Shown here: one piece after another, positions 31,201 to 34,200 of the stretch | Numbering within the stretch: the stretch's first letter is position 1 | How the letters are laid out: each line of letters opens with the position of its first letter | Source of the DNA: Lampris incognitus | Lineage: Eukaryota > Chordata > Actinopteri > Lampriformes > Lampridae | Reading direction: 5' to 3' | DNA: 64,000 nucleotides | NCBI RefSeq assembly: GCF_029633865.1 | Contig: NC_079219.1 | Span: forward strand, 54,662,013 to 54,726,012 | Made by a program: the position numbers and the translations under genes | The notes under the pieces: model-generated | Databases searched by the model: none | The model's input: the letters and a program-made list of their open reading frames with translations, nothing else | Told to the model about the DNA's origin: nothing

Positions 31201-34200
31201 CATGGACTACCGTGACCGCTTCAACAAAGTGGTGGAGGTACCCTTTAACTCCACCAACAAGTTCCAGGTGAGAGGAGGAGCACGTTGGGTTATTACTGGG
31301 CCGGCAGGGGGGCGGGCAGCTCATTCAAGGATTGCTGTTTTTCCCTCATATCAAACCCCACAGCTATATTGTTCCGGTACGTCCCTGTACCCTTTGCTTC
31401 CACTTCTCTTCTCCCCATCTTCCCTCTACTTCCCCTCTCCTCACCTACCTCCATCCTCCCTACGAGAATGCAGAGAGTTTATCTAAGCTTGACCTTATCT
31501 TTACCTCCTGTGCACATTTCAACTCAGATTCTAAGTTACTGTAGACCAGTGTTTCTCAACCGGGGGTCCGCGGACCCCTAGTGGTCCGTGGTGTAATTGC
31601 AAGGGGTCCGTGAAAATAAAATGTCTTTAAAAAAAAGATCCTATGACATTTATAGAAATATGATTATTTTACTCAAATGTGACTGAGACCTTTATCTACC
31701 TGAACTATAAAGGGTAACAGGACTTTTTTCTCTAATTACATCTGTTTCACAAGTGTAATTTATTGTATTTTAATAAGAGATCTCGCTCCCGTTCGCATTG
31801 TTAAAAGTTACTGCATAAAAATTCTGTTTTGTTACATATATCTGAAAGTTACTGAATACATACTCTGTTTTGTTACATATATCTGAAAGTTACTGAATAC
31901 ATATTCTGTTTTGTTACATATATCTGAAAGCTACTGAATACATATTCTGTTTTGTTACATATATCTGAAAGTTACTGAATACATATTCTGTTTTGTTACA
32001 TATATCTGAAAGTTACTGCATAAGAATTCTGTTTTGTTAACTATATCTAAGTTACAACTGAAAGCTCTTATTTTTGCCCCAAAGAGTGAATAAATGCTAT
32101 AATGCAATTTAAAATGCAGTTTCTACTGTTTCTATCAAATCGCAACCCCCCTCCCCCAAGATCAGGTGGAGGGGTCCTCAGGGTAGATCAAAAATACGCA
32201 GGGGGTCCAGGACCCCCAAAAGGTTGAGAACCACTGCTGTAGATAAAACCCTGTTGCACTTCCCCTCCCCTACCTCACTTCCCTTCTGCTCCTCTACAGT
32301 TGTCCATCCATGAGCTGGAGGACCCCTTGGACCTGCGCTACCTCTTGGTGATGAAGGGAGCGCCAGAGCGAATCTTGGAGCGATGCTCCACCATCCTCGT
32401 GAAAGGCCAGGAGATTCCCCTTGACGAACAGTGGAAAGATTCTTTTCAGACTGCATACATGGACCTGGGAGGACTCGGCGAGAGAGTCCTGGGTGAGAGC
32501 GAGAGAGAGAGAGAGAGAAAGTGTGGTGGGGGGGGGGCTTCCTTCGGTGACAATGTTGGCATGCTGCTATATAACTCATGGGGGGGGCAAATCTATATTG
32601 GTGTGGCATATTGTACAGCCCTTGTCGACATAATCAAGTTGATTTCTGTCCATTTGTTTAAAGAGGCATTCACATCGGTCTGAGTTTCACCCGGCTGTTG
32701 TTCACACAACTTGATGAGACTGTGGAGCCCTGAACTAACAAACATCTCCTTCCCTCTCAGGCTTCTGTCATCTCTACTTGAACGAGAAAGAGTTCCCTCG
32801 TGGATATCGTTTCGAGTCTGACGATATGAATTTCCCCACCTCGGGACTGTGCTTCGCGGGTTTAATTTCCATGATCGACCCTCCCAGAGCCACCGTGCCT
32901 GATGCAGTGATGAAGTGTCGAACGGCTGGAATTAGGGTGAGAAAGAAAGAGAGTCAGAGAGGGACGTAGGAAGGAAGGAAGGAAGGAAGGAAGGAAGGAA
33001 GGAAGGAAGGAAGGAAGGAAGGAAGAAAGGAAGGAAGGAAGGAAGGAAGGAAAGAAAGAAAGAAAGAAGGAAGGAAGGAAGGAAGGAAGGGAGGACGGAC
33101 TGACTGACTGACTGACTAGAGGCGTCTGGCGGTCTATTCCATTGCCTACCAACACGGGGATCATCGGTTTGAATCCCTGTGTTACCTCCGGCTTGGTCGG
33201 GCATCCCTATCGACACATTTGGCCGTGTCTGCGGGTGGGAAGCTGGATGTGGGTTTGTGACCTGGTCGCTGCACTAGCGCCTCCTCTGGTCGATCGAGGC
33301 GCTTGTTTGGGTGGAGGGGAAACGGGGGAATAGCGTGATCCTCCCACGTGCTACTGTAAACTACTAATAAGACACGTTAGCCCCTAGCTAACGGGTCCGA
33401 CCCTTTAGCCGAGCGGTTAGTGATGTCGCCTTGTGGTGCAGTAAACCCCGGATCGAATCCCGCACCAGGCAAGAAAATAACCGGTTACATTGGTGGCAGC
33501 GGTGGGATCCGGAAATGTGCAGATCCTCAGAAGTCTCTTCGGAGCGCGGGAAGAACAAAGCGCGAGGGCGCGCTTCCGGGGAGGGTGACGACTGTAAACT
33601 ACTAATAAGACACGTTAGCCAAGCGGTTAGTGATGTCGCCTTGTGGTGCAGTACACCCCGTATCGAATCCCGCACCGGGCAAGAAAATAACCGGTTACAC
33701 TACCATGTCCCCCTGGCGAAACTCCTCACTGTCAAGTGAGAAGAAGCGGCTGGCGACTCCACATGTATCGGAGGAGGCATGTGGTAGACTGCAGCTCTCC
33801 CCAGATCGGCAGAGGGGGGGTGGAGCAGCAACTGGGACGGCTCGGAAGAATGGGGTAGTTGGGGAGAAAAAGGGGGGGAGGCTATAAGATCGGTTATTGA
33901 ACTGTACTTTTCTGGTATTCATTATCACACCAACAATGCCACTCCTAAATCAAACAGACCCGACATTAATGTTAATACCTGCAGCAGTGTTTATCCTGCT
34001 ATACTTACATCACTTGGTCCCACAATCCCTCTGTGCTTACATATAGATTGATTTTCACCTTTAGATGGTGGCAAACTCACAAAAGTGCCAATAAAGTGCC
34101 AATATGGTTTACTTGCTCTTGCAGTACTCTTAAAAAGGCTTAAGCAGTGGTGGTTCTAGTTTGTATGGTGCCCTGGGACCCCCCTGCCCCCTTCATCCCC

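What the first reader, a model, noticed from the sequence alone, without database searches (positions are those of the whole stretch)
33355..33699. Miniature LTR element whose LTRs carry a tRNA-like module
Seen: direct repeats with TG...CA ends, 4-bp target duplication, a tRNA-Leu primer site and a purine tract, all in 345 bp with no room for genes. Inside each LTR, A-box-like and B-box-like motifs sit 44 bases apart, the spacing of a real tRNA gene. Known: plant Cassandra TRIMs have 5S rRNA sequence in their LTRs. Inference: this may be a vertebrate TRIM that uses an internal Pol III promoter. I know of no described fish family like this.
Basis: partly seen in the sequence, partly recalled or inferred. 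Interest (0 to 1): 0.82.

Follow-up and report, generated by a model that had tools for sequence, protein, structure and literature searches.

The report
Fish mini-retrotransposon borrowing its helper's LTR
This is a very short, gene-less jumping element of a kind already named (Helenus, with a tRNA-like piece in its repeats), and its genome also holds many hybrid copies that carry one end from a large helper element, which points to how the small one is copied.

Summary
In detail: 33355-33699 is a complete miniature LTR element (LTR 135, interior 103, LTR 107 bp; TSD CTAC; 18-nt primer site; A/B-box-like motifs 44 bp apart), inserted in a dispersed repeat whose uninterrupted copies show the empty site. 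About 2,600 such LTR-interior junctions lie in this 1.48-Gb genome. The kind is not new: Kojima 2024 (PMC10886601) named TRIMs with a tRNA-like LTR "Helenus", fish families with 4-bp TSDs included. What my searches did not show in print is its relation to a helper. A Ty3/gypsy element here (RT, RNase H, integrase) shares LTR tips, primer site and TSD length. Junctions of the helper's LTR with the Helenus interior number 174 (82 exact); of 12 read, 12 have the helper LTR 5' and Helenus LTR sequence 3'. The mirror form, helper LTR at the 3' end, was found at 0 places, against 2,603 normal 3' junctions. Matching TSDs flank 5 of 9 hybrids with both ends. Best explanation: both RNAs are copied in one particle, and the helper's plus-strand strong-stop DNA moves onto the Helenus minus strand through the shared primer site. 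Pol III transcription is untested.

The parts
33124..33354 (.). left part of the dispersed host repeat into which the element inserted
   Evidence: empty-site alignments, 19 (18 places), 9 of them in the window; outer bound approximate
33351..33354 (+). target-site duplication CTAC, left copy
   Evidence: CTAC present once in most uninterrupted host-repeat copies
33355..33489 (+). 5' LTR, 135 bp, TGTAAAC...GGTTACA
33406..33416 (+). A-box-like motif TAGCCGAGCGG in the 5' LTR
   Evidence: position; motif pattern recalled
33450..33460 (+). B-box-like motif GGATCGAATCC in the 5' LTR (GTATCGAATCC in most copies)
33490..33592 (+). interior, 103 bp, no room for a gene
33491..33508 (+). primer binding site TGGTGGCAGCGGTGGGAT, the same in the helper element and in three other Helenus-like families
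   Evidence: tRNA-Leu assignment recalled
33578..33585 (+). short purine tract GGGGAGGG, 7 nt before the 3' LTR
33593..33699 (+). 3' LTR, 107 bp (28 bp lost)
33616..33626 (+). A-box-like motif in the 3' LTR
33660..33670 (+). B-box-like motif in the 3' LTR
33700..33703 (+). target-site duplication CTAC, right copy
33704..33876 (.). right part of the host repeat; outer bound approximate

Best explanation
The window element is a copy of a Helenus-type TRIM (family A here). SHOWN: its anatomy, insertion with a 4-bp duplication, about 2,600 LTR-interior junctions in the genome, and hybrids with one Ty3/gypsy element. INFERRED: its RNA, probably made by Pol III from the tRNA-like module (untested), is packaged into particles of that Ty3/gypsy element, primed by the same tRNA, reverse-transcribed by its RT and integrated by its integrase, which sees near-identical LTR tips (TGTAA[A/C]CTA ... 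CGGTTACA). The hybrids (helper LTR - primer site - Helenus interior - Helenus LTR) arise at the second strand transfer: the helper's plus-strand strong-stop DNA, which ends in the 18-nt primer-site copy, anneals to the finished Helenus minus strand instead of its own. That predicts a foreign LTR at the 5' end only, as seen. A hybrid lacks a helper R at its 3' end and should not copy itself by this route, so each should be a separate event. The excess over the mirror form is explained, tentatively, by a race: a Helenus minus strand of under 0.4 kb is finished long before the helper's own of about 6 kb.
For: Helper: at C1 (L087 + L102) an element of about 6.2 kb with 254-bp LTRs (97.2% alike), TSD TCTA, the same T + primer site, LTRs starting TGTAACCTA (5') and TGTAAACTA (3') and ending CGGTTACA; RVT_1 9.5e-29, RNase H 5.7e-32, H2C2 7e-18, rve 6.2e-10 on separate open frames. 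Whole-genome junction counts: Helenus LTR|interior 2,592 and interior|Helenus LTR 2,603 (<=3 mismatches); helper LTR|Helenus interior 82 exact, 174 with <=1 mismatch (at least 6 of these are the first half of the chains below); Helenus interior|helper LTR 0 (<=3); helper LTR|helper interior 37 exact + 25 with one mismatch = 62, short derivatives included; Helenus LTR|helper interior 10 (<=3). 12 of the 82 exact hybrid places were read: 12 of 12 have helper LTR sequence 5' and Helenus LTR sequence 3'; over the loci held, 19 of 19 classed hybrids have Helenus LTR sequence 3'. TSDs of the nine hybrids with both ends at the flank: exact in L067, L113, L117, L119 and L123 (by eye; the script lost its end), 3 of 4 bases in L116, L120, none in L121, L124. 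Of the 10 Helenus-LTR|helper-interior places 6 are chains helper LTR - Helenus interior - Helenus LTR - helper interior, L112 a truncated one, L111 reads as one with a deletion, and L106, L107 carry a short helper derivative, as a race with serial transfer would give.
Against: No transcript, particle or reverse-transcription data. The helper's LTR showed no similarity to the Helenus LTR beyond the tips. A prediction failed: helper LTR joined to the interior of family C, which has the same 18-nt primer site, was found at 1 doubtful place with 3 mismatches, so the primer site alone is not enough, or family C used another helper or time; I have no baseline count for family C. The independence of hybrids is argued from logic and different TSDs; sequence distances (within hybrids 0.0576, hybrid-normal 0.0563, within normals 0.0523; 16 and 34 units) show no closeness among hybrids but have little power, and the separation statistic of that call was significant (0.0005), which I ascribe, untested, to the normals having been picked largely by interior similarity. 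Of 9 hybrids with both ends 2 have no TSD and 2 an imperfect one. L106 and L107 have no established TSD. Evidence that Helenus-Helenus pairs also mix LTRs is only suggestive.
Confidence: 0.78

Rival explanations
1. DNA-level recombination between finished linear cDNAs (or integrated copies) of helper and Helenus through the shared 27-bp stretch around the primer site.
For: The junctions were found by patterns across that shared stretch, and lie in it in the hybrids read.
Against: Crossing over between cDNAs gives both reciprocal products equally: 82 exact helper-LTR|Helenus-interior against 10 of the other kind (6 exact), most of them chains. Exchange between integrated copies would not leave matching 4-bp duplications (5 exact, 2 near of 9).
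Confidence: 0.12
2. The hybrid is a replicating family of its own that arose once and keeps two different LTRs.
For: Uniform layout in 12 of 12 places read.
Against: Known LTR replication makes both LTRs from one template; the hybrid has no helper R region at its 3' end. Hybrids are not closer to each other than to normal copies (weak).
Confidence: 0.07
3. The element is moved by LINE machinery like a SINE, using its tRNA-like module.
For: tRNA-like module with A- and B-box-like motifs.
Against: 4-bp TSDs, TG...CA ends, LTR-interior-LTR layout at about 2,600 places, hybrids with an LTR retrotransposon.
Confidence: 0.02

Closest known systems
Helenus TRIMs (Kojima 2024, PMC10886601; outline, parts 1-4 of 6 and tables read), fish families around zebrafish LTR-11_DR
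   Same: TRIM, tRNA-like sequence with boxes A and B in the LTRs, primer site and purine tract, 4-bp TSD in animals, tRNA-Leu among vertebrate primers, thousands of copies and tandem arrays in zebrafish
   Different: The parts read name no fish helper and report no hybrids with one (for animals, primer-site similarity to Gypsy only); box B there is GGTTC, here GTATC in most LTRs of family A. I could not compare sequences with LTR-11_DR (supplements not open to me).
Cassandra TRIMs of plants (PMC7215508; abstract listing, passages and Discussion read)
   Same: miniature LTR element with a Pol III promoter module in the LTR; tandem LTR-interior arrays
   Different: 5S rRNA module, plants, helper called unknown there
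Template-switched complex LTR insertions in Triticeae (Sabot and Schulman 2007, PMC1950507; abstract and passages) and Onsen recombinants (Sanchez 2017, PMC5668417; passages)
   Same: recombination between co-packaged LTR elements; TSDs around the Triticeae products
   Different: there the outer LTRs are said to come out identical (Triticeae), or the LTR joints lie mostly in R between members of one family (Onsen); here the two LTRs of one insertion are of two different families, the foreign one 5' in all hybrids seen
LTR swapping between autonomous and nonautonomous elements in soybean (Du 2010; not held; title seen in a reference list)
   Same: by its title, LTR exchange between helper and dependent element
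   Different: not read; whether one-sided hybrids were seen is unknown to me
Second strand transfer in HIV-1 (Cappy 2017, PMC5651808; abstract and Introduction read)
   Same: the same step of reverse transcription; the paper argues that it can be intermolecular
   Different: described as generally intramolecular in single-cycle studies; here an intermolecular one is inferred between two different elements

Membership tests
Helenus (TRIM with tRNA-like LTR) | two LTRs, short, no coding capacity | tested here: met
Helenus (TRIM with tRNA-like LTR) | tRNA-derived sequence with boxes A and B in the LTR | tested here: inconclusive
   box-like motifs beat shuffles and the module is shared across four families, but ARAGORN and Rfam find no tRNA and box B of family A is GTATC in most LTRs, not GGTTC
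Helenus (TRIM with tRNA-like LTR) | primer binding site and polypurine tract at the ends of the interior | tested here: met
   purine tract short and 7 nt off the LTR; tRNA-Leu match recalled
Helenus (TRIM with tRNA-like LTR) | 4-bp TSD (animals) | tested here: met
   window CTAC; 17 of 33 occurrences exact
Helenus (TRIM with tRNA-like LTR) | Pol III transcription (expected of the group, not shown in the paper) | not testable with these tools
   no expression data
Helenus, LTR-11_DR lineage | sequence similarity to LTR-11_DR | not testable with these tools
   its sequence is in a supplement and Repbase; not available here
SINE | movement by LINE target-primed reverse transcription, longer variable TSDs, no LTRs (recalled) | tested here: not met
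   4-bp TSDs and LTR layout
Ty3/gypsy (the helper) | RT, RNase H, integrase in this order | tested here: met
   one copy

The most novel reading that the evidence does not exclude
Helenus lives off its helper at a particular step: its short minus strand is ready first and takes over the helper's plus-strand strong-stop DNA through the shared primer site. It so acquires a Pol II-type LTR at its 5' end and robs the helper, so that in this genome helper 5' LTRs stand before Helenus interiors (174) more often than before the helper's own interior (62; both <=1 mismatch). Serial transfers of the same kind make the tandem arrays and the helper copies with a Helenus unit built in.
Probability: 0.55. 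Interest if true: 0.78.

Novelty: new member of a known kind. Interest (0 to 1): 0.6.

Why it matters
For animal Helenus the paper read gives only primer-site similarity to Gypsy elements (PMC10886601), and Cassandra's partners are called unknown (PMC7215508). One-sided hybrids would name a helper without a transposition assay, and the same search could be made for any TRIM. They also suggest that the second strand transfer, described as generally intramolecular for HIV-1 in single-cycle studies (PMC5651808), can be intermolecular many times in one genome, and that LTR-LTR divergence is then an unsafe clock for such elements.

Tried and rejected
(1) In the first 41 loci nearly every copy had a full 5' LTR and a differently deleted 3' LTR. 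Rejected: the window copy, which has such a deletion, had been the query; loci drawn by the interior alone have two full LTRs as a rule. (2) Absence of TTTT as a Pol III hint: not significant (62% of shuffles have none). (3) Within-copy LTR identity (0.9413) does not exceed that between copies (0.9403; 447 of 2000 permutations reach it, 27 copies); at LTR sites 27 and 94 the two LTRs differ in 10 of 30 and 8 of 31 copies against 42 of 750 at other C sites outside CpG. This fits Helenus-Helenus intermolecular transfer, but a single master with mutable sites could do the same; not used as proof. One interior site goes with the 3' LTR at site 27 (p 0.037 and 0.029) and not with the 5' LTR (0.43 and 0.37), uncorrected for multiple looks. 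(4) Family C hybrids predicted, not found. (5) The six Rfam hits in L077 are all below the gathering score; five lie on one stretch that holds an LTR end and its inverted copy. (6) The comparison of helper LTRs in hybrids and in helpers failed in the script and was not repeated. (7) The 338 places with <=3 mismatches are not used as hybrids, since family B copies lie at 3 mismatches by my count.

Full report
What is there. It sits inside a dispersed repeat; 19 alignments (18 places, 9 in the window) show that repeat without it, most with CTAC once.

How many. The whole-genome search scored 40 of 2,309 candidates and gave 42 matches. Pattern searches report whole counts: 2,592 places for the 5' junction LTR|interior and 2,603 for the 3' junction interior|LTR, both 39-mers with <=3 mismatches. 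In 30 loci drawn by the interior alone, 17 of 33 interior occurrences had an exact 4-bp TSD under my boundaries. Of 30 non-redundant ones 27 have Helenus LTRs on both sides, 1 a helper LTR 5', 2 an unclassed 5' side.

What kind. Kojima 2024 (PMC10886601; outline, parts 1-4 of 6 and the tables read) describes Helenus. The window element meets its layout, primer-site, TSD and size features; the tRNA origin of the module is supported here only by box-like motifs and by sharing between families, not by a tRNA model. At least four families with the same primer site occur in this genome. In family A the B box is degenerate (GTATCGAATCC in the majority), in the C and D copies read it holds GGTTCG. 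A search for 'Helenus' and 'TRIMp3' with two of four terms listed 20 of 150 papers, Kojima's the only one on the group; one for LTR-11_DR found only Kojima's.

The helper. Searching for the primer site followed by a base other than C gave 225 places, 30 of them cut out as loci. In 10 of the 30 (L075, L079, L086, L087, L089, L090, L092, L093, L095, L098) a different LTR end...CTACAAACCCTC-type, stands before the searched site, and 8 of these 10 share a different interior (GATGCTTGTGCC...). One such element, at C1 117.29-117.30 Mb (L087, L102), has 254-bp LTRs (97.2% identical) with an AATAAA, a TSD of TCTA, and open frames with RT, RNase H and integrase domains; the 332-aa frame in gag position has no Pfam match. 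Its best box score is 12 of 16.

The hybrids. Places where the helper's LTR end meets the Helenus interior: 82 exact, 174 with <=1 mismatch, at least 6 of them the first half of chains. I read 12 of the 82: 12 of 12 are helper LTR - primer site - Helenus interior - Helenus LTR sequence; in L114 and L123 the 3' LTR is cut or interrupted, in L115 and L122 the 5' LTR is truncated, and L118 runs on into a further primer site. With L067 from the interior-drawn sample, nine hybrids have both ends at the flank: five exact TSDs (L123 by eye, as the script lost its end), two with 3 of 4 bases, two without. The mirror junction, Helenus interior to helper 3' LTR, was not found (0 at <=3 mismatches; control 2,603). 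Helenus LTR joined to helper interior occurs at 10 places: L103, L104, L105, L108, L109, L110 are chains, L111 reads as a chain with a deletion, L112 is a truncated chain, and L106 and L107 have the Helenus LTR outermost before a short helper derivative with an inverted helper LTR piece, without an established TSD.

Why this points to second strand transfer. In LTR replication the 5' LTR comes from plus-strand strong-stop DNA moved to the 3' end of the minus strand by pairing of primer-site copies (established knowledge; described in the Introduction of PMC5651808). If strong-stop DNA of the helper pairs with a Helenus minus strand, the product has a helper LTR 5', then primer site, Helenus interior and Helenus LTR, with the tips that integrase needs. 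I know of no other single step that gives a complete foreign LTR at the 5' end only. First-transfer switching needs a shared R, which the two appear to lack. The product should not repeat itself by the same route, so the numbers should count events. The race explanation of the asymmetry is my inference.

Limits. One genome, unnamed; no expression data; 12 of 82 exact hybrids read; family C hybrids not seen; the hybrid-normal distance test is weak and its separation statistic unexplained but for sampling. 354 helper-LTR 3' ends were counted with <=1 mismatch over 25 bases, so about half of them may stand before a Helenus interior, but the patterns differ in length and the ratio is rough. Literature searches touching hybrids or intermolecular transfer between LTR elements (15 of 279 listed, 15 of 35, 7 of 7, 10 of 11) showed none of this form in titles, abstracts or the passages opened; the library lacks most subscription papers, and Du 2010 could not be read.

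Noticed in passing
window 35521-35922, 38453-38769, 41208-41264: Further Helenus-like LTR fragments (nearest the D and A sequences) in the same window.
   Followed up: no
L086, L092, L099, L106 (also L090): A short derivative of the helper: first ~230 bp of the interior, then a helper LTR piece in inverted orientation, ending in its U3 tip in L086, L092, L099 and L106; perhaps a fold-back product that integrase still accepts.
   Followed up: partly
window 48802-49299, minus strand: Open frame with a weak GIY-YIG match (4e-4, below the curated cut-off); a Penelope-like element is a guess.
   Followed up: no
window 7279-7794, minus strand: Open frame with a FAST kinase-like subdomain match (4.8e-9); probably an exon of a host gene.
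   Followed up: no
L005, L017, L027, L071: Tandem LTR-interior-LTR-interior-LTR arrays of the Helenus element.
   Followed up: partly
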